Program-made: the position numbers and the translations under genes | In this document: piece by piece, positions 1-9,354 of the stretch | How the letters are laid out: each line of letters begins with the position of its first letter | Numbering within the stretch: position 1 is the first letter of the stretch | Notes under the pieces: model-generated | The model's database searches: none | Told to the model about the DNA's origin: nothing | Seen by the model: the letters and a program-made list of their open reading frames with translations, nothing else | Assembly: GCA_029560815.1 (NCBI GenBank) | Contig: JAKQKF010000323.1 | Coordinates: 1 to 9,354, forward strand | DNA: 9,354 bases | Direction of reading: 5' to 3' | Origin: a bacterium | GTDB lineage: Bacteria; KSB1; UBA2214

Positions 1-2295
1 AACCCTGGCGTCCTTGCCGAAATCCATGACCAGGGCGCGCATGAGAGTATAGTCCTCAAAGGTCACCTTTGCTGCAAGGGAGTAAAGATAGGGCAGCAAA
101 CGGTAGCGGAGTTTGTCATAGGCCAGCATGGCCTGATAGGCGGGATGGTCCGCCGGGGCGATGTTGAACATCTCCCGGTAAGGAAACTCGCCGTGCACGC
201 GGAGCAGGGGAACGAAGGTGCCGAACTGGAACCAGCGCGCGTTGAATTCCCGCCATTCCTCAAGATCGTCGGGTTTGACATTGCGCTCCCAGCGCGGCTC
301 GACCGAAAAACCGCCGATATCCATGGTCCACCAGGGCACACCGGAGAGATTGAAGTTGAGGCCGGCCGAAATCTGCGCTTTCAGGTCGTACCAGCGCGTG
401 ACAATATCGCCGCTCCAGGTTGCCGCAGCATAGCGCTGCTGTCCGGCGAAAACCGAACGAGTCAGGATGAAAACCCGCTGATCCGGTTTGGCCTTGCGCT
501 GGTTCTCATAAATGCCGCCCGAATGGACCAGGGTATAACTGTTCAGATAACGGGAAGAGGAGCCGAGCCCGGTCGGGCCGATGCGACGCCGCGTCTCCTC
601 GAGCGAGAGGTTGGAGTGGATATCCGGCTCGGTGGCATCGAGCCACCATGCGTCAAATCCCATGCTGAAGAGATGTTCGTTGATCTGATCCCAGTAGAGC
701 TGGCGCGCCTCGGCGCGATAGGGATCGTAAAAAGAGCAGGTATAACCCGGGCCGACCCAATCGCGTTCCTTGACCTCCACGTTGCGCATATAAAGCCAGC
801 CGGGATGGGCGGCGAACTCGTTATAATGCTCGGTACCGACGTAAAACTTGGGCCAGACCGAAATCATGATCCGGGCGTGCAGATCGTTGTGGAGCTGCTC
901 GACCATACCCCTTGGATCGGGGAACCGGCTGGCGTCAAAGACATGGCTTCCCCATTGGTCCTCGTTCCAGTAGAACCAGTCCAGTACAATATTATCGAAG
1001 GGGATCTCACGCTGGCGGAACTCCTTGACCACCGAGAGAAGTTCTTCCTGGCTGGTGTAGCGCTGGCGGCTCTGCCAGAGGCCGAGGGCCCATTTGGGCA
1101 TGAGCGGAGCCTGGCCAGTGAGCGTGCGATAGCCGTGGATAATCTCATCGAAATTCTCGCCATGCACGAAGTAATAGTCAATCTGGTCGCCGATCTGGGA
1201 CCAGAGTGAAAGGCTGTTAGGAGGGGTGGCATGATCGGGAGGCAGATATTTGAGTCCGAGATAGCCGCCCATATGGATCCATTCGATCTTGAGATCGTAG
1301 CGCTTGCCGGCGACCATCTGCAGGCGGGGGAGGGTCGTCCAGGGCAGCCAGTTCTGCCGGTAGTTGTCGGCCACAAGCACCCCGTCCAGCCACATCTTGA
1401 TGTAGCCGGAGGCATAAAGCCGGAACTTGAACTCCCCGCTCTCCGGAGCCTCGATCTGGCCGGTGTAGCGCACGCTGGCTACATTCTCCTTGAAACCGTC
1501 AGGAAAGGGGTCGTTGACATCGATGAATTCATGCTCGATGCGCGGTTCGGTGCGTGAGGCGAATAGTTCCTTAAAATCGGCACTGCGGAAATACTCTGCG
1601 GTGAGGCCTCCCGCAGCCCCGCTCCGGTCAAAGAGTTTGAGATCGGCGAGAGACCGAAAATCGCGGATATCCCCGAACCGGGTCTGGGAGGTATTGTCCC
1701 AAAGGATGCCATAATTCCTGCTCGATACCAGAAAGGGATTTACATCAACAATATTGAGCTGAAAGAGATCGACATCATGGCCCTTGTAATTCATCACATC
1801 ATTCTGGTGCTCTCCCAAACCGTAAAAAGCTTCGTCCGCGGGGGAATGAAAAAGCTGCCTGATGTTCTGGGTCTTTTCCTCCATTACTGTGGCCGGCGTA
1901 TAATAACGACCGTCCGCCCGTTCTGCGAGGATGAGTTTGCCCCGGGAGTCATGGAAGGAGACAGCTCCGTTCCGTTTTTGCACACGGACCCTGAGTTTGG
2001 CCGTCCTGATTTCGATCAAGGCTCCTTTGTCACGCACGGTCCAGGACGGGGCAGGGCCGGAGAGAGGAACCCGCATCAGGCTCGGGCGGGCCGAAAAGCT
2101 ATCGGCAGGTGAAGCGACCACTCGGATGAGTTCATCGCCGCAGACCTCGATTTTGAGCAGGGCAGTACCGGCCGCCGATTTCCTGTCCAGATGGAGGAGG
2201 ATACCATCCGCCAGTTTTTCATAGCCGAGACCTGTAGCGGCCAGGGAGAAGGTCATTCCGGCCAGGAACAGCAGATGCAAATGCAAACGATTCAT
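1..2295 (-). CDS. GH31 family alpha-xylosidase-like glycoside hydrolase with PA14 insert, C-terminus cut off by window edge
   Basis: This 765-residue reading frame has no stop and runs off the left edge. It starts with ATG at 2295, preceded by AAAGGAAAGAG, and an export signal (MNRLHLHLLFLAGMTFSLA). Domains in order: N-terminal galactose-mutarotase-like beta-sandwich (about 25-225, with FYGLGEH); a PA14-type insert (about 229-353, from LTAEYF to LKYLPP); then the (beta/alpha)8 catalytic barrel from about 395 (PKWALGLWQSRQRY). The nucleophile motif WWLDATEPD places the nucleophile at D553. TWSGDI places the likely acid/base at D630. From family knowledge, a PA14 insert with LDATEP is typical of xyloglucan-active alpha-xylosidases such as Cellvibrio CjXyl31A, which release non-reducing-end alpha-1,6-xylose from xyloglucan oligosaccharides. 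The exact substrate is inferred, and alpha-glucosidase activity is possible. The expected C-terminal beta-sandwich domains lie outside the window. The export signal suggests a periplasmic or surface location. Confidence 0.93.
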   Translation of the reverse strand, partial: MNRLHLHLLFLAGMTFSLAATGLGYEKLADGILLHLDRKSAAGTALLKIEVCGDELIRVVASPADSFSARPSLMRVPLSGPAPSWTVRDKGALIEIRTAKLRVRVQKRNGAVSFHDSRGKLILAERADGRYYTPATVMEEKTQNIRQLFHSPADEAFYGLGEHQNDVMNYKGHDVDLFQLNIVDVNPFLVSSRNYGILWDNTSQTRFGDIRDFRSLADLKLFDRSGAAGGLTAEYFRSADFKELFASRTEPRIEHEFIDVNDPFPDGFKENVASVRYTGQIEAPESGEFKFRLYASGYIKMWLDGVLVADNYRQNWLPWTTLPRLQMVAGKRYDLKIEWIHMGGYLGLKYLPPDHATPPNSLSLWSQIGDQIDYYFVHGENFDEIIHGYRTLTGQAPLMPKWALGLWQSRQRYTSQEELLSVVKEFRQREIPFDNIVLDWFYWNEDQWGSHVFDASRFPDPRGMVEQLHNDLHARIMISVWPKFYVGTEHYNEFAAHPGWLYMRNVEVKERDWVGPGYTCSFYDPYRAEARQLYWDQINEHLFSMGFDAWWLDATEPDIHSNLSLEETRRRIGPTGLGSSSRYLNSYTLVHSGGIYENQRKAKPDQRVFILTRSVFAGQQRYAAATWSGDIVTRWYDLKAQISAGLNFNLSGVPWWTMDIGGFSVEPRWERNVKPDDLEEWREFNARWFQFGTFVPLLRVHGEFPYREMFNIAPADHPAYQAMLAYDKLRYRLLPYLYSLAAKVTFEDYTLMRALVMDFGKDARV

Positions 2296-2493: not shown

Positions 2494-3225
2494 CTAGAAG
2501 TGCCTTTGCATAGAGAGGAGCAGATGGGGTTGGATCCTGCCGTCCCCGAACTGGAGGTTCCACTCCACCCGGCTGGCCTGACTGTCGTTGTAGCGGTTGA
2601 CGCTCCAGACGGCATCAATGGCGCTGATGAGATGGTTCGCCAGGATAGCGCCGAGCACAAAGGTGCCGCGGTTGCGCGCCTTATCCGAGGAGATACGCAG
2701 CTGATCAAAGCGCTCCCGGTTCGCTGCGGAATCCCACTCCCAGTGCCATGCATCCAGGTCCCGATAATAGTCGTTGAGATTGCGCTGGCGCAGCTTGGCC
2801 TCGTTGTACTGCTGGATGGTATCATAATTGCCGATGTTGGCATAATAGGTATCGCTCTTGCCAGCGGGATTCACTCCGGCGTGCCGGGCGGCGTAACTCT
2901 CCATCTCATCGTGGCGCCAGTCCGACCAGGTCAAAAATCCGGCATAGCCGAGCCAGAGACTGATTTCCGTGCCCAAAAAGATCTTCGCCTTGGTCCCGGC
3001 GCCGGCATAGTGCTCCCCGAGACCGGGCAGAAGGAAGGAGAGCATCAGGGCCTTGCCGCGCGATTTTTCATCGAGTCCGGAGGCGGCCTGCGGAGCGGCT
3101 TCGTCGGCCGCAATCAGCGGCAGCGGCGCGGGGAAAAAACGGGCGGGTTCCAGCCGCGGTTCGGCTGCAGCGGCAGCGCTGCACAATCCCGCAGCGAGAA
3201 ACAGCGTGAAAAAAGATCTCTTCAT
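2494..3225 (-). CDS. DUF5683-like exported membrane protein, second of a tandem pair
   Basis: The protein has 243 residues if it starts at the ATG at 3225. An in-frame GTG at 3243 would add six residues before the signal peptide and overlap the upstream gene. ATG is preferred because it gives a clean signal (MKRSFFTLFLAAGLCSAAAA) and lies 4 bases after the upstream stop, suggesting translational coupling. No strong ribosome site precedes it. Visible elements: a KALMLSFLLPGLGEHYAG hydrophobic segment at 58-75, a YYANIGNY motif at 127-134, and a second hydrophobic segment with NHLISAIDAVWSV at 197-209. The protein ends in Phe. The LPG.G..YAG motif is characteristic of DUF5683-type proteins, whose function is unknown. 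The same three motifs occur in the neighbouring gene, so the two are paralogues. Envelope location is inferred from the signal peptide and hydrophobic segments. Confidence 0.85.
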   Translation of the reverse strand: MKRSFFTLFLAAGLCSAAAAAEPRLEPARFFPAPLPLIAADEAAPQAASGLDEKSRGKALMLSFLLPGLGEHYAGAGTKAKIFLGTEISLWLGYAGFLTWSDWRHDEMESYAARHAGVNPAGKSDTYYANIGNYDTIQQYNEAKLRQRNLNDYYRDLDAWHWEWDSAANRERFDQLRISSDKARNRGTFVLGAILANHLISAIDAVWSVNRYNDSQASRVEWNLQFGDGRIQPHLLLSMQRHF

Positions 3226-3229
3226 TTTT

Positions 3230-4045
3230 CTACCAATCCACACGAAGGGTTAGGGCCGAGTAGGGGTGCTGATCCAAATGGCGCGGCTCGAAGAGGAGAC
3301 GGGCTTCGGCGATGCTGCGGTTGTGCCGGCTGACCGTCCAGACGGCATCGAGGGCGCTGGCGAGATGGTTGATCATGACCAGGGTGAGGCTGCCTGTGGC
3401 GCGCTTGAAGGCGGTGTTGCTGGCGTTGCGGCGGCCCTCGTAGTAGAGCCTTTTGGCCGAACGTTCTTGCTCCTTGAGATAGATGATCTTGTCCGTGGGA
3501 CGCGGAGTGGTGTTGTAGACGTCGTTCCAGCCGTAATTGAACTGGTTGTATTTGCCGATCATCTCGTAATACTGCTGGTCTTTTTCGAGGTGCAGTCCGT
3601 GACTGAAATTGGCGTGTTCCCATTCGCGCAGGGCCTCGCGATTGTCCACGGAGAGGCCCGCCAGCGATGCGATGGCGTTCCAGTATTGCTCCTCGCTCCA
3701 GTTCTGATTGGCATAGGCCTCGAACTCATCCTCGATGCGGTTGCCCTCACCAGAAAAATCGGAATAGAGGTACCAGCCCGCCGCCTCGACAGCGATGAAG
3801 CCAAGGGCCTTGAGGTAGCTGCCGGCGTAGAGCTGGCCGGCGCCGGGGAGCACGGCGGAGAAGATCAGCGCCTTGCCCCCGTTTTTAGCGTCGATCGCGT
3901 ACCCGCTGCTCTCGACGGCCTCATCGGCCGTATCCTGCAGGGCGAACTGCATGCGCGGAGCAGCGATCATGAACTCCCGCCAGTCCGTCGCACCGGCGGC
4001 CGCGGTCAAAGCGAGCGAAACCATCAATACCGTCTCTCTAATCAT
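3230..4045 (-). CDS. DUF5683-like exported membrane protein, first of a tandem pair
   Basis: The protein has 271 residues. The ATG at 4045 is preceded by GGGAGAAGGGT, with GGAG six bases upstream, a good ribosome site. The N-terminus (MIRETVLMVSLALTAAAGA) resembles a short signal peptide. The motif KALIFSAVLPGAGQLYAG at 58-75 sits at exactly the same residue number as in the downstream paralogue. It is followed by YYEMIGKY at 159-166 and NHLASALDAVWTV at 226-238. The central part between the hydrophobic segments is rich in Tyr, Trp, Asn and acidic residues, and is longer than in the paralogue. The last residues (ALTLRVDW) look like a beta-strand ending in an aromatic residue, as outer-membrane proteins often do, though two hydrophobic helices are equally visible. 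No biochemical function is known to me for this family. The gene lies 64 bases after the peptidase-barrel gene. Confidence 0.85.
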   Translation of the reverse strand: MIRETVLMVSLALTAAAGATDWREFMIAAPRMQFALQDTADEAVESSGYAIDAKNGGKALIFSAVLPGAGQLYAGSYLKALGFIAVEAAGWYLYSDFSGEGNRIEDEFEAYANQNWSEEQYWNAIASLAGLSVDNREALREWEHANFSHGLHLEKDQQYYEMIGKYNQFNYGWNDVYNTTPRPTDKIIYLKEQERSAKRLYYEGRRNASNTAFKRATGSLTLVMINHLASALDAVWTVSRHNRSIAEARLLFEPRHLDQHPYSALTLRVDW

Positions 4046-4109: not shown

Positions 4110-7100
4110 TCAATCCATAAAATCGAAGAGCGCCATCAGATAATAACGCCACTCCCGGCCATAGCTTTGACCGCCGTTTTCCACCATGTCAAGGCCGTAG
4201 GCCGCCTCGAACGAAAGCGCGGTCGGAAAACCGTAAAAGGAAAAGCCGTTCAGGCGCAGCGAGGCGCCGGCCGCTTTCTTGAAGGCGCTCAAATCGATCT
4301 TGTCCTCGTTGAATGCGTTGCCGTAATCGAAAAAAGCGCCCAGGTAGAGATTGCCGCCGTTGAGGTGCAGGAACTGCTTCTGCACTCCCGTTATCAGGGG
4401 CAGGCGATAGGCGAAGCGGCCGAGGAGCATTTTGCGGCCTTCAATGCTGTAGTAGGGATAGCCGCGCAAACCGGGCAGGCCGCCGGCGAAGAAATTGAAA
4501 AAACTGTCCACCGGGCGGTCAATCCATCCCGCATGGATGTTGGCCGAGAGGCCGTGGCGGCGCGCCCAGGGAGCGGCCAGATACTCATGCCAGTTCAACT
4601 CCAGGCGATGGTAGTTATAGCGGGCGTAGACTTCCTGCAAGGTGCCATAGCTGTTGTCGGTGGCGAAATCCTCGAAGAAGCGGTTGCGTTCATAGGAGTA
4701 GCGCAGCTCGGCTTTGCGCCCGGCGCGCGGATTGATGTCGGAGGTGACGCCGGGGGCCACCGCGTTGAGATTCCAGGTGGCGATGAACTGGTTGCCGACA
4801 TAATAGGTGTTGGCTGGCGAAACCCAGTCGATCCCCTTGAAGAAAAAGTCCCCGATCTTGCTGGTATAGCGGCTGTGGACAAAGGCACCGCGCATGGTCA
4901 GCCCCTCGGCGAGGTTGATGCGCGCGCCAAGGTCCGCTTCAAGGATGTTGAAACGGATGTCGGCGTTGACCTTCTCCGGATAGTCCTCAATCACATCGAT
5001 CTCGCGCTCGATATGGCGGGAAAAGGAGTAGAGTTCGAGAAAGAGGGTCGGTTTGAAGCGGCGCATTTCGACGATGGCGAAGGCGTCGAGATCCATCTGC
5101 GGATTGAGAGTAGCGCCGCCGAAAAGGGAGTAGCGCTCAAGAATATCGCTGGCGTAAAAATAACTGCCGAGCTTGAGGGTCTTGTAGTCGATCATGGCCC
5201 GGGGCAGGAAGGTGATCTGGCCGTAGGTCATCTCGTAGGGCTCGGTTTTGATTTCGGGCAGTCGGGTGTCGTCATGATCGCGCAGGGCGATGAGCTCCGG
5301 CGGGGTCACGGGCTCGGTCAGCCCCAGCCGTTCGGCGTTGTCGGCCGGCAGATAGCGGGCGGATTCCTGCGGTACCATCCGGGGAGCGCGCAGCAGGGCG
5401 ATTTTGTAGCCGTCATACTGGAATTGCGACCACGCCAGTTCGCCGTTGATCGAGAGCGAGGGCATGAAAGCCCCGCCGCTGGTGTTGGTCCAAAGCCTGA
5501 GATCGCCTCCATCCGGCTGCATGCTGTAGATGTTAAAAATCCCGCTCCTGTCCCAGGCGAAATAGAGGCGGCTGCCGTCAGGAGTGAACCAGGGATCGCG
5601 GGCATCGCCATTACCGGCGATGAGGGCGGTGCGCTCGCCGCTGCCGGTGTCGAGCAGGATCAGATCGCGGCCGTGGCGGCGCGCCTGTGAAAAGACCACA
5701 TGACGGCCGTCAGGCGACCAGCGCGGCCCCGTGATCCCCTCGCCATTGCTGAATTCAGTGAGAGCGCGAAGCAGGTTGCCCTCGCCATCCAGAAGCACCA
5801 GATTGTCGGTGCCGTCCTTCTGCACGGCGCAGAGTATCGAGCTGCCGTCGGGCGAAAGGTCCGGACTGAAGGCGCGCATCCGGCGGGTGAGCTGTTTTTC
5901 CTTGCCGCTATCGAGATCATAGCGGAAGAGATCACTGAGGCGGGAGCCGTACCGGCCCCGCTCAATGCGGGCGTAGTAGAGCACGCTGCTGTCGCGGTTC
6001 CAGGAGATCTGGCTGCTGACGTTGCGCTTGAGCAGCTTTTTCTTGCCGGTGGCGGTGTCATAGAGCCAGAGGTGGGTCATGCTGAGATAGTCACTGGACT
6101 CGCTGCCGCAGTAGGCCAGTTTCCGGCCGTCCGGCGACCAGGCCGCAAAGGTATTGCCGATGCCCCTGGGAGTGAGGATCTCCCCCTCGACGCGATGCGA
6201 ATCGATCACCGCCAGGCGCTGGCTGTAATAGCGCCCCATCTCCTCCTGCCACTCTTTATAGAGCGCTTCACCGCCCCTGCCCGTGGCCGCCTTGAGGGCG
6301 CCCTCGGCCGTGAAGGCCAGCGGCCGGGAGAGGCCGTCCGCAAGCTTTTGCAGCGCCTCCTGACCGTGCCGGCGGACGATGTAGCGGATCAGGGCATAGC
6401 CCATGTTATAGGTGCGCTCGTTGCCAAGGCTGTTTTTGCCAAACACTCCCATCTCATCGTAGGAGAGCTGCTCTCCGGCCACGACCGCCGTGCGGATGAG
6501 CATGTCGCGGTGGCTGTCCCAGAGGTCATACTGCAGCCCGGGAGTCTGGATCTGCGCCATCCCCTCCGCCATCCACATCGGCACCACAGTCATGGCGAGG
6601 GGATAGGAGGCGATGACGTTGGGGTATCCGTAGAGGACATCATCGCGCTTTTCCGGTTCATAGCCGAAAGCCTGCAGATAAAAAGCCGGGATCTTGCGCG
6701 GCAGTTTACGCGCCGCCCCGAGCGAGATCATGTGGGAAAACTCATGGGTCACCACATTGCGCAGCCAGTCGTGGGTGCCGCGCAGGATAAAGGTCATCTG
6801 CGGGGCCCAGATCTCCACCTTGTTATCGTAATAAAAAGCGGCGCCGTTGGAGTTGTCGTCATGATCCTTGATGATAAAGTGGATGGGGCCGTCAGGACGG
6901 TAGTTGTAAAGGCCGGTGACCGGCGCGTAGATCTCCTCGGCCACTTTGGCAACCACCCGGGCGGTGCGCTCGGCGCCTTCGTGAAAATGGACCTCAAAAT
7001 GGCCGGTCTTGAGGGTGTACCACTCCAGTTCGGGATGATTGATCGGCTCTTCCTGGGCAAAAAGCAGGGAGGCGAGGAGCAGGATCAGTAGAACGGGCTG

Positions 7101-7133
7101 TGCAGGGAAATTTGCATTCCTGATATATTTCAT
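4110..7133 (-). CDS. Fusion protein: HEXXH metallopeptidase-like domain, TolB/PD40-type beta-propeller, Omp85-like outer-membrane barrel
   Basis: The protein has 1007 residues and starts with ATG at 7133, with AGGA 11 bases upstream. The signal peptide covers about residues 1-26 (hydrophobic LLILLLASLLFA, then QEEP). Residues 30-310 form a gluzincin-like peptidase domain: H130-E131-F-S-H134 is a zinc motif, and WMAEG at 187-191 supplies a candidate third ligand, E190, as in the peptidase MA-like group. Residues 325-580 hold propeller repeats with PD40 motifs: WSPDGRKLAY at 332, LSPDG at 427, WSPDGRHVVF at 472, FTPDGSRLYF at 516. Residues from about 640 to 1007 alternate aromatic and polar residues as in a beta-barrel, and GGLPGLRGYPYYSIEG (884-899) matches the LRGY signature of Omp85/surface-antigen barrels. 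No POTRA repeats are obvious. Inferred role: an outer-membrane-anchored peptidase or scaffold whose propeller may bind partners. The substrate is unknown. All three catalytic-type residues are present, so activity is plausible. Confidence 0.9.
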   Translation of the reverse strand: MKYIRNANFPAQPVLLILLLASLLFAQEEPINHPELEWYTLKTGHFEVHFHEGAERTARVVAKVAEEIYAPVTGLYNYRPDGPIHFIIKDHDDNSNGAAFYYDNKVEIWAPQMTFILRGTHDWLRNVVTHEFSHMISLGAARKLPRKIPAFYLQAFGYEPEKRDDVLYGYPNVIASYPLAMTVVPMWMAEGMAQIQTPGLQYDLWDSHRDMLIRTAVVAGEQLSYDEMGVFGKNSLGNERTYNMGYALIRYIVRRHGQEALQKLADGLSRPLAFTAEGALKAATGRGGEALYKEWQEEMGRYYSQRLAVIDSHRVEGEILTPRGIGNTFAAWSPDGRKLAYCGSESSDYLSMTHLWLYDTATGKKKLLKRNVSSQISWNRDSSVLYYARIERGRYGSRLSDLFRYDLDSGKEKQLTRRMRAFSPDLSPDGSSILCAVQKDGTDNLVLLDGEGNLLRALTEFSNGEGITGPRWSPDGRHVVFSQARRHGRDLILLDTGSGERTALIAGNGDARDPWFTPDGSRLYFAWDRSGIFNIYSMQPDGGDLRLWTNTSGGAFMPSLSINGELAWSQFQYDGYKIALLRAPRMVPQESARYLPADNAERLGLTEPVTPPELIALRDHDDTRLPEIKTEPYEMTYGQITFLPRAMIDYKTLKLGSYFYASDILERYSLFGGATLNPQMDLDAFAIVEMRRFKPTLFLELYSFSRHIEREIDVIEDYPEKVNADIRFNILEADLGARINLAEGLTMRGAFVHSRYTSKIGDFFFKGIDWVSPANTYYVGNQFIATWNLNAVAPGVTSDINPRAGRKAELRYSYERNRFFEDFATDNSYGTLQEVYARYNYHRLELNWHEYLAAPWARRHGLSANIHAGWIDRPVDSFFNFFAGGLPGLRGYPYYSIEGRKMLLGRFAYRLPLITGVQKQFLHLNGGNLYLGAFFDYGNAFNEDKIDLSAFKKAAGASLRLNGFSFYGFPTALSFEAAYGLDMVENGGQSYGREWRYYLMALFDFMD

Positions 7134-7169: not shown

Positions 7170-8435
7170 CTAATTAAGGATTGGAAAACCGCTCAGCCGG
7201 AAGATGTAGCTGTCATACTCTGTAATGGTGAATGGATACTGGTCATCCATTTCAGATTCCGCATGGTGCTTTTCAAAGGAAATACGGCTCAGAATGCGCC
7301 CCCACCAGGTCCGGTCCAGGTCGAGAAAGACAGCGGCAATGCGCAAGGGCTGTAAAAAGTTGATGCCATAGCCAGAAGTCCCGGCACTGGTTTTTCCTTC
7401 GATATCCTCATATGTACCCGAGCGCAGGAAATAGATATCCCCGAAATTAAACTCATGGCCGCGTCTTCTGATGGTCCCGGGATTGGCTTTGCCCAGCACC
7501 ACGTTATCGTAAAACCGGAGATCCGGCGCACCAGACAGATACCTGGATGTGCCATCGGGGTAACGTTCGATCAGCATATCATCGACCTCCCGGCTCCAGC
7601 TAAAGCCGGCGAGAGTCAAACCTCGATAGCGCACGCCCGCCTGAAGATTGAGCCCGATACTGAGAGATCGCGGGATAGGGTCAGCCTGCGCCGCCTCGAT
7701 ATAGCTGATTTTGCCGCCGATATTGGTCTTGCTGTAATAAAAGCCGGGATCAATCCAAAAGTTAAAAGGCGACACGGGTTCGCGTGCGAGCAGACCGCTT
7801 GCACGTCCGATCTCGATCAGGGGCAGCTGCAGCATCAGCCCCCAATCTTTGGCATCGATGCTCGCCCGTCCGTCGCTCGGCTCGATTCCTGCCCCGAAAG
7901 GCGCGAGATGCGAGTCGATATGTTTCCAGGTGATGCCGAAACTGGCACGAATGTAATAATCGACTGCCAGGGCCAGGGTTGTGCCCTCGCAGTTCTCATA
8001 ACTCGAAAACGAGCCCTGAGGCTCAGGGCTTGATTCGCTGGTCTGATATACCGTACCCAGATCCAAAGCTACTTTACTGCGGGCAATACCAATCGAGACC
8101 GGAATCCTGCTGAATTGCCTCAGGTTGATCCCAACAGCGGTTGTCTGGGCATCATAGGTCAGGTCATCTGTGAGAAATGGCAGCCAGACTATGGCCTCCG
8201 GGTAATACTCCTGGCCGATAAAATTCTTCTGGGCAAAGAATCCCAGGGCAGCGGGATTCATGATCGCAGCCATCGGTGAAGCAGCCGACGCAGCGCCATA
8301 GCTTTGGCCCATACCATTAGCCTGAGGAGACGGCGAGATCAGTAAAAAGAGCACAGCGGCTTCAGACACCGCAAAAGCCTGGCCGATTCCAATCAGCGAG
8401 AGGAAAATCAGTATTCCTGCTATTCTTTTTTTCAT
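7170..8435 (-). CDS. PorV/PorQ-family outer-membrane beta-barrel protein
   Basis: The protein has 421 residues. The ATG at 8435 is preceded by GGGAGAAGCAG, with GGAG six bases upstream. The signal peptide is MKKRIAGILIFLSLIGIGQAFA. Right after it comes the family signature: FLLISPSPQANGMGQ (30-44), then AAIMNPAALGF (56-66). This corresponds to the SPD.R..GMG...A.......NPA.LA pattern of the PorV/PorQ (UPF0164, FadL-like) group. The rest alternates hydrophobic and polar residues with many aromatics, as expected for a barrel. In T9SS organisms PorV carries cargo from the SprA translocon to the cell-surface attachment complex. Related proteins in other FCB lineages are uncharacterised. Its position 43 bases downstream of a gene encoding a sorting-domain protein suggests handling of that cargo, which is an inference. 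The gene looks less GC-rich by eye than its neighbours. Confidence 0.85.
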   Translation of the reverse strand: MKKRIAGILIFLSLIGIGQAFAVSEAAVLFLLISPSPQANGMGQSYGAASAASPMAAIMNPAALGFFAQKNFIGQEYYPEAIVWLPFLTDDLTYDAQTTAVGINLRQFSRIPVSIGIARSKVALDLGTVYQTSESSPEPQGSFSSYENCEGTTLALAVDYYIRASFGITWKHIDSHLAPFGAGIEPSDGRASIDAKDWGLMLQLPLIEIGRASGLLAREPVSPFNFWIDPGFYYSKTNIGGKISYIEAAQADPIPRSLSIGLNLQAGVRYRGLTLAGFSWSREVDDMLIERYPDGTSRYLSGAPDLRFYDNVVLGKANPGTIRRRGHEFNFGDIYFLRSGTYEDIEGKTSAGTSGYGINFLQPLRIAAVFLDLDRTWWGRILSRISFEKHHAESEMDDQYPFTITEYDSYIFRLSGFPILN

Positions 8436-8478: not shown

Positions 8479-9354
8479 CTAATGGGTTACAGCAATTTTG
8501 ATGATCTCAAAGCGGCTTTCACCGCCGGACTGAGCTAGCACCTTCGCCAGATAAACCCCGCTCTGCACTCCGCTCGCTTCCCAGGCGATTTCGTGGTCAC
8601 CTGGCAAGAGGCCTTCCCGGGAGAGCTCACCGACGAAATTGCCGGCGAGGTCAAAAATCCGGATGATAACCCGTTCGGCAGGACGGGCGAGGGTGAAGCG
8701 GATATTGGCGGCGCCTTCGGTCACCGGGTTGGGATACGAAAAGACTTTTTTCGCCGGCATGAGATCAGCGGACTGAACAACGCCCTGGGTGTCGCCCGGC
8801 AGGCAGAAACTCCGCCGTTCGCCGGAGCCTCCCCTGGCCCAGATCTGCTCGTACTCATCCACACGGATCCCGAGATTATACATATTGAGGCTTCCATCCG
8901 CACCGGCAGCGATGAGCTGCAGTTCGGACGTTATACCCATGTGATCGATGATCAAGGCGGCGTCAGCTGCTGCCCCGGCATCGAGAGGGAATCCAGCCGC
9001 CTCCTCACCGCTCTGATTGACGGCGTGGATAAAGCCATCGCTGCCGATAAAAGCCATCCACGCCCCGCCCTGGCCGCTCTTCTTGTAGAAAACCGGGCTG
9101 CCCGGCGCGGTTTCGGTGGGCGCAGCGGGTGTTACCGGGAAGTTGAACACAAGCGCACCGGTGAATTCAAAGGCCGCCGCGCCTTCGCGCGCCGCGCAGA
9201 GAATCTCCGGCAGACCGTCGAGATCGATATCGCCGATGGCCGGCGCCTGAATACCGCTGAATCCCACCGGCGGCTGATAGCTGCCGAGGGCAGTACCGTC
9301 AGAAGTGAATTTGTCGAACGAGCCGTCCCGGCCGATCAGAACGATCTCGTATCC
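8479..9354 (-). CDS. Secreted FG-GAP/VCBS-type protein with C-terminal T9SS-like sorting domain (N-terminus outside window)
   Basis: The visible part has 291 residues. The frame is open to the right edge, so the gene starts outside the window; an in-frame GTG at 9267 is an internal Val codon, because the coding pattern continues upstream of it. Visible residues 39-55 contain AIGDIDLDGLPEILCA, a D-x-D-x-D-G-x-x-E calcium-loop motif typical of FG-GAP/VCBS propeller blades. Further blade-like pieces follow (FIGSDGFIHAVNQSGE at 102-117, AAGADGSLNMYN at 149-160). From about 205 (FSYPNPVTEGAANIRFTL) to the end, the pattern YPNP, IRIFDLAGNFVGEL, PGDHEIAWE and SGVYLAKVLA matches the T9SS type A sorting domain (FlgD-Ig-like fold). 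In T9SS bacteria this domain directs secretion across the outer membrane and is removed on surface attachment. The protein is therefore probably a surface or extracellular propeller protein. Its ligand cannot be told. Confidence 0.88.
   Translation of the reverse strand, partial: GYEIVLIGRDGSFDKFTSDGTALGSYQPPVGFSGIQAPAIGDIDLDGLPEILCAAREGAAAFEFTGALVFNFPVTPAAPTETAPGSPVFYKKSGQGGAWMAFIGSDGFIHAVNQSGEEAAGFPLDAGAAADAALIIDHMGITSELQLIAAGADGSLNMYNLGIRVDEYEQIWARGGSGERRSFCLPGDTQGVVQSADLMPAKKVFSYPNPVTEGAANIRFTLARPAERVIIRIFDLAGNFVGELSREGLLPGDHEIAWEASGVQSGVYLAKVLAQSGGESRFEIIKIAVTH

What the first reader, a model, noticed from the sequence alone, without database searches (positions are those of the whole stretch)
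4110..7133. Peptidase, beta-propeller and Omp85-like barrel in one polypeptide
Seen: HEFSH at 130-134 with WMAEG at 187-191, four or five PD40-type repeats between 325 and 580, and an LRGY barrel signature near 889 in one uninterrupted frame. Known: Omp85 proteins normally carry POTRA domains before the barrel, and TolB-type propellers are normally separate periplasmic proteins. Inferred: the peptidase and propeller replace POTRA as the periplasmic (or surface-exposed) part, giving an outer-membrane-tethered protease that could process or sort envelope proteins. Similar architectures may be annotated as hypothetical in other FCB genomes, but I know of no characterised member.
Basis: partly seen in the sequence, partly recalled or inferred. 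Interest (0 to 1): 0.72.

Follow-up and report, generated by a model that had tools for sequence, protein, structure and literature searches.

The report
Outer-membrane peptidase linked to protein export

Summary
ORF 7133-4110 (minus strand, 1007 aa) carries HEFSH 130-134, WMAEG 187-191, PD40 repeats and LRGY 889-892. AlphaFold (pLDDT 84.7) gives a peptidase domain of gluzincin fold, a TolB-like propeller and 16 long barrel strands of Omp85 type; no POTRA was found. H130, E131, H134 and E190 are identical in 91 of 91 sequences.

POTRA-less "WD40-Omp85" proteins were described in 2014 (PMC4104836). New here is the context: a PorV-M6i-[this gene]-DUF5683 cluster across several phyla, with PorU upstream in some lineages. 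M6i is a T9SS-tailed M6 metalloprotease homologue lacking HExxH in 66 of 66 sequences. In 247 Bacteroidota genomes the two occur in exactly the same 95, even in some where the genes are unlinked; 95 other genomes with the SprA translocon lack both. So it is not core T9SS machinery but an M6i partner.

Best reading: a periplasm-facing outer-membrane peptidase that handles M6i during T9SS export or assembly. The association is well supported; the mechanism is inferred.

The parts
4110..7133 (-). Focal gene: hydrophobic N-terminus that looks like a Sec signal peptide (about 1-26), gluzincin-type peptidase domain (about 30-312), TolB-like propeller (about 313-588), linker (589-640), Omp85-type barrel strands (641-1003)
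   Evidence: ORF; Pfam; hydropathy (no signal-peptide predictor was available); model; fold matches
6732..6746 (-). HEFSH zinc-binding motif, residues 130-134
   Evidence: translation; H130, E131 and H134 identical in 91 of 91 sequences
6561..6575 (-). WMAEG, residues 187-191, with the predicted third zinc ligand E190
   Evidence: W187, E190, G191 identical in 91 of 91; spacing the same in 87 of 91
4458..4469 (-). LRGY, residues 889-892, in the loop between barrel strands 11 and 12
   Evidence: loop position; Y892 identical in 91 of 91, G891 in 84 of 91
8479..9354 (-). C-terminal 291 residues of the upstream partner M6i (T9SS-dependent M6-like inactivated metalloprotease) with T9SS type A sorting tail; its start lies outside the window
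   Evidence: NF052323 E 2.4e-35, 121.8 bits, matching profile 784-1043 only; Por_Secre_tail 28.2 bits, cut-off 27
7170..8435 (-). PorV/PorQ-like protein between M6i and the focal gene; a second PorV-like copy also stands here in L002 but not in L001
   Evidence: NF033709 57.5 bits, cut-off 90; PF19572 24.8 bits, cut-off 27; order
3230..4045 (-). DUF5683-like protein (first copy), conserved downstream neighbour
   Evidence: PF18935 27.3 bits, cut-off 26.7; DUF5683-like frame downstream in 56 of 61 testable loci
2494..3243 (-). DUF5683-like protein (second copy), seen in many of the 80 loci
   Evidence: PF18935 18.6 bits, below cut-off

Best explanation
The protein is an outer-membrane, POTRA-less Omp85-type barrel that carries a TolB-like propeller and an apparently active gluzincin metallopeptidase on its periplasmic side. 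It works as the partner of M6i, a large T9SS-exported, catalytically dead M6 metalloprotease homologue whose gene stays near PorV and often PorU. Proposed mechanism: M6i (or an assembly containing it) passes through the periplasm on its way to SprA and PorV; the propeller acts as a docking platform, the peptidase trims or clears clients, and the barrel, whose seam strands are its best conserved wall, anchors the machine and may help place a membrane partner. Shown: architecture (by prediction), conserved zinc-site residues, gene cluster, co-inheritance with M6i beyond linkage, presence alongside SprA, PorU and BamA in the genomes checked. Inferred: periplasmic orientation, catalysis, contact with M6i, and the handling role.
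For: Cluster: an M6i-like frame within 5 kb upstream in 60 of 65 testable loci and a DUF5683-like frame downstream in 56 of 61 (80 loci held). PorU, PorV, M6i and SprA pass their curated cut-offs around it in L035. Co-inheritance: focal and M6i in the same 95 of 247 Bacteroidota genomes, neither in the other 152; 10 of 95 pairs not adjacent, at least G103 and G235 truly unlinked. Seven loci that lacked one of the usual neighbours lie in genomes that all hold M6i (7 of 7). On a SprA tree of 80 of those genomes the shared state changes at least 9 times, 5 after dropping 7 negatives from fragmented genomes. Genomes chosen from the loci also have SprA 30 of 30, PorU 30 of 30 with 28 over cut-off, and BamA over cut-off 30 of 30. 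Zinc-site residues invariant, 91 of 91, while M6i lacks HExxH in 66 of 66. Mean conservation is 0.64 in the peptidase, 0.69 in L6 and 0.55-0.69 in strands 1-4 and 13-16, against 0.39-0.47 in strands 5-11 and 0.25-0.46 in the other extracellular loops.
Against: No experiment and no predicted complex with M6i; co-occurrence does not prove contact. In KSB1 and Marinimicrobia the match is imperfect: 8 of 82 and 9 of 100 genomes have only one of the pair, perhaps from broken assemblies. There M6i is scored below its curated cut-off in most or all genomes (over it in 26 of 82, and in 0 of 100), so those counts rest on E<=1e-40. Two KSB1 genomes with a focal hit, G042 and G058, show no SprA. Without the fragmented negatives the supported independent pairs are only 4 (p 0.125), and since the two presence lists are identical the same list was entered for both traits, so that test only counts events. 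Periplasmic turns of the barrel are not uniformly conserved (0.18-0.64). If M6i acts outside the cell, a periplasmic partner is not the obvious expectation.
Confidence: 0.42

Rival explanations
1. A dedicated outer-membrane insertase with built-in quality control, in effect BamA, a BamB-like propeller and a BepA-like protease in one chain, serving large T9SS barrels such as SprA or PorV.
Against: 95 of 190 SprA-bearing Bacteroidota genomes lack it, so SprA does not need it; BamA is present over cut-off in 30 of 30 genomes checked; presence follows M6i rather than SprA.
Confidence: 0.24
2. Focal protein and M6i act in one T9SS-dependent downstream task, such as capture and processing of a surface or imported polymer, without direct contact or any role in secretion.
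For: Co-inheritance persists when genes are unlinked, which asks only for a shared pathway; organisms with SprA can do without the pair.
Against: Ordered linkage to PorV, and in some lineages PorU, across phyla suggests a tie to the secretion system itself (inference). No polymer-specific family stood out among the largest frame clusters, most of which were not annotated.
Confidence: 0.2
3. A surface-exposed, barrel-anchored protease: the peptidase and propeller are delivered outside through the barrel or by another route.
For: The older PlpD model proposed this for an Omp85 enzyme fusion (described in PMC4104836); M6i, PorU and PorV are surface or outer-membrane proteins (recalled).
Against: PlpD's enzyme domain was later placed in the periplasm (PMC11116518, passages); no T9SS tail family hit the focal protein; an even-stranded barrel should leave the N-terminus in the periplasm (16 strands; topology rule recalled).
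Confidence: 0.08

Closest known systems
WD40-Omp85 subfamily (Heinz and Lithgow 2014, PMC4104836; abstract, section 10 and passages seen)
   Same: POTRA-less Omp85 barrel with an N-terminal WD40/TolB-like propeller; TolB named there as the nearest structure.
   Different: The word peptidase does not occur in that paper's main text; an N-terminal zinc peptidase, a T9SS cluster or M6i are not described in the parts read. Its supplementary tables could not be opened, so identity of the two sets is likely but not verified.
Omp85 'Metallo' subfamily (same paper)
   Same: Described there as Omp85-metalloproteases, so the idea of a protease fused to an Omp85 barrel was in print.
   Different: Defined by PF00149 (a metallophosphoesterase family, recalled), a domain that did not hit the focal protein at E<=1; no propeller mentioned for it in section 10.
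PlpD / FplA, patatin-type Omp85 proteins (PMC11116518, passages)
   Same: Enzyme domain N-terminal to a 16-strand Omp85 barrel, located in the periplasm in PlpD.
   Different: Lipase, not peptidase; one POTRA instead of a propeller.
BamA (F. johnsoniae, 9n2f; BAM complex in PMC12611786, passages)
   Different: BamA carries POTRA domains (recalled) and is a separate protein in the same genomes. The six-subunit F. johnsoniae complex has a metal-containing BamM, but WD40 and propeller do not occur in that text.
TolB
   Different: Far below the TolB cut-off (104.2 of 343.15 bits); no TolB N-terminal domain among the Pfam hits.
T9SS attachment proteins PorU, PorV, PorZ
   Same: Shares a gene cluster with PorV and, in some lineages, PorU.
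   Different: No T9SS sorting tail hit; no known Por protein has this architecture (recalled).

Membership tests
Omp85 superfamily (barrel definition of Heinz and Lithgow) | 16-strand Omp85-type barrel | tested here: met
Omp85 superfamily (barrel definition of Heinz and Lithgow) | RGF/Y motif in loop L6 (recalled) | tested here: met
   LRGY 889-892 between strands 11 and 12; R or K at 890 in 90 of 91, G891 in 84 of 91, Y892 in 91 of 91
Omp85 superfamily (barrel definition of Heinz and Lithgow) | Pfam PF01103 gathering score | tested here: not met
   19.7 of 24 bits for the window protein; PF01103 is precomputed for several homologues, e.g. P0007, P0008
BamA/TamA family | Periplasmic POTRA domain(s) | tested here: not met
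   No POTRA family at E<=1; only a 52-residue linker between propeller and barrel
WD40-Omp85 subfamily | TolB-like propeller directly before a POTRA-less Omp85 barrel | tested here: met
WD40-Omp85 subfamily | Membership of the published sequence cluster | not testable with these tools
Gluzincin peptidases (clan MA(E)) | HExxH plus downstream Glu on a gluzincin fold | tested here: met
Gluzincin peptidases (clan MA(E)) | Pfam Peptidase_MA_2 gathering score | tested here: not met
   25.2 of 32.4 bits for the window protein; PF13485 precomputed for many homologues
Gluzincin peptidases (clan MA(E)) | Zinc binding and peptide hydrolysis | not testable with these tools
   No experiment; ligand distances not measurable
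TolB | TolB equivalog score (TIGR02800) | tested here: not met
   104.2 of 343.15 bits
Core T9SS component | Present wherever the SprA translocon is present | tested here: not met
   95 of 190 SprA-bearing Bacteroidota genomes lack it
T9SS-associated accessory component | Gene neighbours are T9SS genes | tested here: met
   PorV, M6i with T9SS tail, in some lineages PorU and SprA
T9SS-associated accessory component | Never found without SprA | tested here: inconclusive
   95 of 95 focal-positive Bacteroidota genomes have SprA, but G042 and G058 of 82 KSB1 genomes show the focal gene and no SprA, possibly from incomplete assemblies

The most novel reading that the evidence does not exclude
The protein and M6i form an unrecognised two-part T9SS module, an active outer-membrane peptidase paired with a secreted pseudoprotease, that spans the outer membrane, was present early in the FCB group and has been lost (or gained) several times as a unit.
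Probability: 0.3. Interest if true: 0.82.

Novelty: new variant of a known kind. Interest (0 to 1): 0.62.

Why it matters
T9SS has been worked out in a few Bacteroidia (recalled). Here is a protein pair, not met in the listings of searches, that accompanies T9SS genes in records labelled KSB1, Marinimicrobia, Ignavibacteria and in Balneola, and is absent from half of the sampled SprA-bearing Bacteroidota. It makes a function for the 2014 WD40-Omp85 orphan subfamily directly testable, and named Balneola, Gracilimonas and Halalkalibaculum proteins of this family exist.

Tried and rejected
Viral origin: the viral-contig scan confirmed no relative (it used six short peptide patterns) and PHROGs gave none. 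The window's own genome is not held, so context rests on relatives, above all L001 (89% identity) and L002.

"It is simply T9SS core machinery": rejected, because half of SprA-bearing Bacteroidota lack it. "It is this lineage's BamA": rejected, because BamA is present over cut-off in 30 of 30 genomes checked. "Linkage alone explains co-occurrence with M6i": weakened by unlinked pairs.

First SprA trees gave 10 changes, but two rows (G128, G277) had been taken from the wrong frame; corrected, giving 9. One search ended in an error because the tree was unfinished, and the tree was collected. The independent-pairs test was given the same presence list for both traits, because the two lists are identical; it therefore counts events and cannot disagree. 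Fisher p-values ignore shared ancestry and are not used as evidence. Near relatives with opposite state (G249 and G179, SprA 93.3% identical) may reflect missing contigs, since a gap would remove both adjacent genes; hence the stricter count without 7 negatives (G337, G249, G325, G266, G329, G116, G297), picked by eye from listed contig lengths and genome sizes. Fragmented negatives inside the large all-negative clade were kept.

Discordant genomes in KSB1 (focal only G035, G036, G058, G068, G077; M6i only G053, G059, G088) and Marinimicrobia (focal only G391, G410, G425, G439, G440; M6i only G346, G401, G408, G428): many of these hits lie near a contig's first base or in shortened frames, but contig lengths were not checked. 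In KSB1, focal presence is my reading at ortholog score, 77 of 82; at the bare threshold one search counts 81 of 82, paralogues included. Thresholds differ by group (focal 1e-60, M6i 1e-40 in Marinimicrobia; both 1e-60 in Bacteroidota).

Names of PF26549 and PF26550, precomputed on nearly all listed homologues, were not found; one search did not list them.

Full report
What is in the sequence. The reading frame 7133-4110 on the minus strand is open for 1007 codons from ATG. Its N-terminus is hydrophobic, like a Sec signal peptide (no predictor available). Pfam PD40 is strong; Peptidase_MA_2 and Omp85 are below their curated cut-offs in this protein. A homologue search scored 7997 candidates and found 1326 at E<=1e-3; the best 120 were listed, and those with an organism name come mainly from candidate division KSB1 and Calditrichota. 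I aligned the window protein with 31 of those 120 (A1).

Conservation. In an alignment of 91 sequences (window, 78 frames over 900 aa from the loci and 12; two are paralogues), H130, E131, H134, W187, E190 and G191 are identical in all 91. With the two paralogues dropped (89 rows), mean conservation is 0.64 for the peptidase, 0.50 for the propeller and 0.48 for the barrel; within the barrel, loop L6 (0.69) and strands 1-4 and 13-16 (0.55-0.69) exceed strands 5-11 (0.39-0.47), the other extracellular loops score 0.25-0.46, and the periplasmic turns vary from 0.18 to 0.64. That pattern favours function at the peptidase and the seam; this is inference.

Neighbourhood. A scan of genome contigs found 190 relatives and kept 80 loci, from records labelled KSB1, Calditrichota, Ignavibacteria, Neomarinimicrobiota, LCP-89, Latescibacterota, Bacteroidota and others. 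Clustering of their frames shows the order PorV, M6i, focal gene, DUF5683: M6i cluster in 67 of 80 loci, PorV in 51, DUF5683 in 65, counted without regard to how much flank each locus has. Where the flank allows a test, an M6i-like frame lies within 5 kb upstream in 60 of 65 loci and a DUF5683-like frame downstream in 56 of 61. A cluster containing PorU is in 15 of 80 loci and one containing SprA in 12; I annotated these only for L035 and L042. In L035 the flanking genes pass curated cut-offs for PorU (970.7 of 420 bits), PorV (272.1 of 250), M6i (909.1 of 600) and SprA (1032.3 of 200), with an LptG-like permease (233.2 of 240) between. In KSB1 and Marinimicrobia loci viewed gene by gene (L007, L009, L045) PorU is not in the cluster. 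The order PorU-PorV-M6i-focal-DUF5683 recurs in several Bacteroidota genomes fetched by handle, for example L081, L090, L093; the L090 protein is identical to a Balneola sp. MJW-20 protein. In the window, a PorV-like gene stands between M6i and the focal gene, as in L002 but not in L001.

The partner. NF052323 names M6i "T9SS-dependent M6-like inactivated metalloprotease". Among 66 sequences none has HExxH; of nine C-termini printed, seven end in KIAV(V/I)K and two in a close variant. So an apparently active membrane peptidase is paired with a dead secreted one.

Co-inheritance. In 247 Bacteroidota genomes drawn by the tool, the focal profile (E<=1e-60) hits 95, M6i (E<=1e-60) hits 95, of which 90 pass its cut-off, and the two sets are the same. 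SprA is in 190, containing all 95. In 85 of 95 the genes are on one strand within 8 kb, M6i always upstream; in 10 they are not. In G103 they lie 0.86 Mb apart on one contig, and in G235 deep inside two contigs of nearly 1 Mb. In G103 and G185 M6i stays by PorU and PorV while the focal gene stands elsewhere, in G185 with DUF5683; in G235 M6i stands without PorU or PorV in the 15 kb read. Seven genomes whose focal locus lacked M6i and/or DUF5683, two of them too close to the contig edge to test upstream, all hold M6i at E<=1e-30, three over cut-off. In Marinimicrobia the pair is together in 81 of 100, one alone in 9, neither in 10; in KSB1, 72, 8 and 2 of 82; M6i passes its curated cut-off in 26 of 82 KSB1 and 0 of 100 Marinimicrobia genomes. 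On a SprA tree of 80 genomes that I chose from the 190 (47 with, 33 without the pair), the shared state changes at least 9 times, with 8 supported independent pairs (p 0.0078); without 7 negatives from fragmented genomes, 5 changes and 4 pairs (p 0.125). The same list was entered for both genes, so the test counts events only. A missing contig would remove both adjacent genes, so the stricter figures are the safer ones.

Is it T9SS machinery? It occurs with T9SS: SprA in 30 of 30 genomes chosen from the 80 loci, PorU in 30 of 30 with 28 over cut-off, SprA in 80 of 82 KSB1 genomes; G042 and G058 have the focal gene but no SprA hit. Yet 95 SprA-bearing Bacteroidota lack it, so it is an accessory tied to M6i rather than core. 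BamA is present over cut-off in 30 of 30, so it does not replace BamA.

How it may work. An even-stranded barrel puts the N-terminal domains in the periplasm (recalled topology rule). PlpD, a studied Omp85 enzyme fusion, supports this (PMC11116518, passages). I propose that the protein handles M6i or an M6i-containing assembly during export: docking by the propeller, trimming or clearing by the peptidase, anchoring and perhaps client placement by the barrel. BepA, a periplasmic metallopeptidase acting on LptD, is the nearest functional analogy (PMC8423444, start of abstract in the search listing). None of these steps has been tested.

What is known. Heinz and Lithgow (PMC4104836; abstract, section 10 and passages) defined WD40-Omp85 proteins without POTRA and suggested a BamA-BamB fusion; they also named a separate Omp85 "Metallo" group as metalloproteases, based on PF00149, which is not the domain found here. 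The PlpD paper (introduction passage) lists WD40-like and metalloprotease Omp85 proteins among those not well characterised. The F. johnsoniae BAM paper (passages) notes T9SS genes at the bamA locus but has no mention of a propeller. The listings of searches (25 of 43 papers shown; 8 of 55 shown) showed no title or abstract start on a peptidase-propeller-barrel protein with T9SS or M6i; I did not read the other listed papers, and most subscription papers are not in that library.

Verdict. Real and well conserved; the architecture is a variant of a named but unstudied subfamily. The new result is its strict association, in the Bacteroidota sample, with a T9SS-exported pseudoprotease.

Noticed in passing
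L019:20086-22962, L024:19977-22994 and many KSB1 genomes (matches to model positions about 175-600): A larger family of mostly 950-1100-aa frames shares the end of the peptidase domain and the propeller with the focal protein, often beside the focal copy in the same genome; function unknown.
   Followed up: no
window 7170-8435: A PorV-like gene is inserted between M6i and the focal gene here and in L002; in L001 the PorV hit lies upstream of M6i.
   Followed up: partly
L006 (record titled Actinomycetota bacterium): This contig encodes a 61% identical focal protein with M6i and DUF5683 hits; possibly a misbinned contig.
   Followed up: no
L034:6665-7609 and L065:4756-6663: A further focal-like frame lies just after the DUF5683 pair, suggesting local duplication.
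   Followed up: no
window 1-2295: GH31 glycosidase with a PA14 domain; among the 80 loci only L001 showed a hit to it.
   Followed up: no
M6i C-termini: Seven of nine M6i tails printed end in KIAV(V/I)K, a strikingly uniform C-terminus for this T9SS cargo.
   Followed up: no
L035:13774-16235, L066:13950-16420: Two adjacent frames on the other strand, one of them LptF/LptG-like by HMM in L035, sit between the DUF5683 gene and the SprA-cluster gene, an LPS-export link at the T9SS locus.
   Followed up: no
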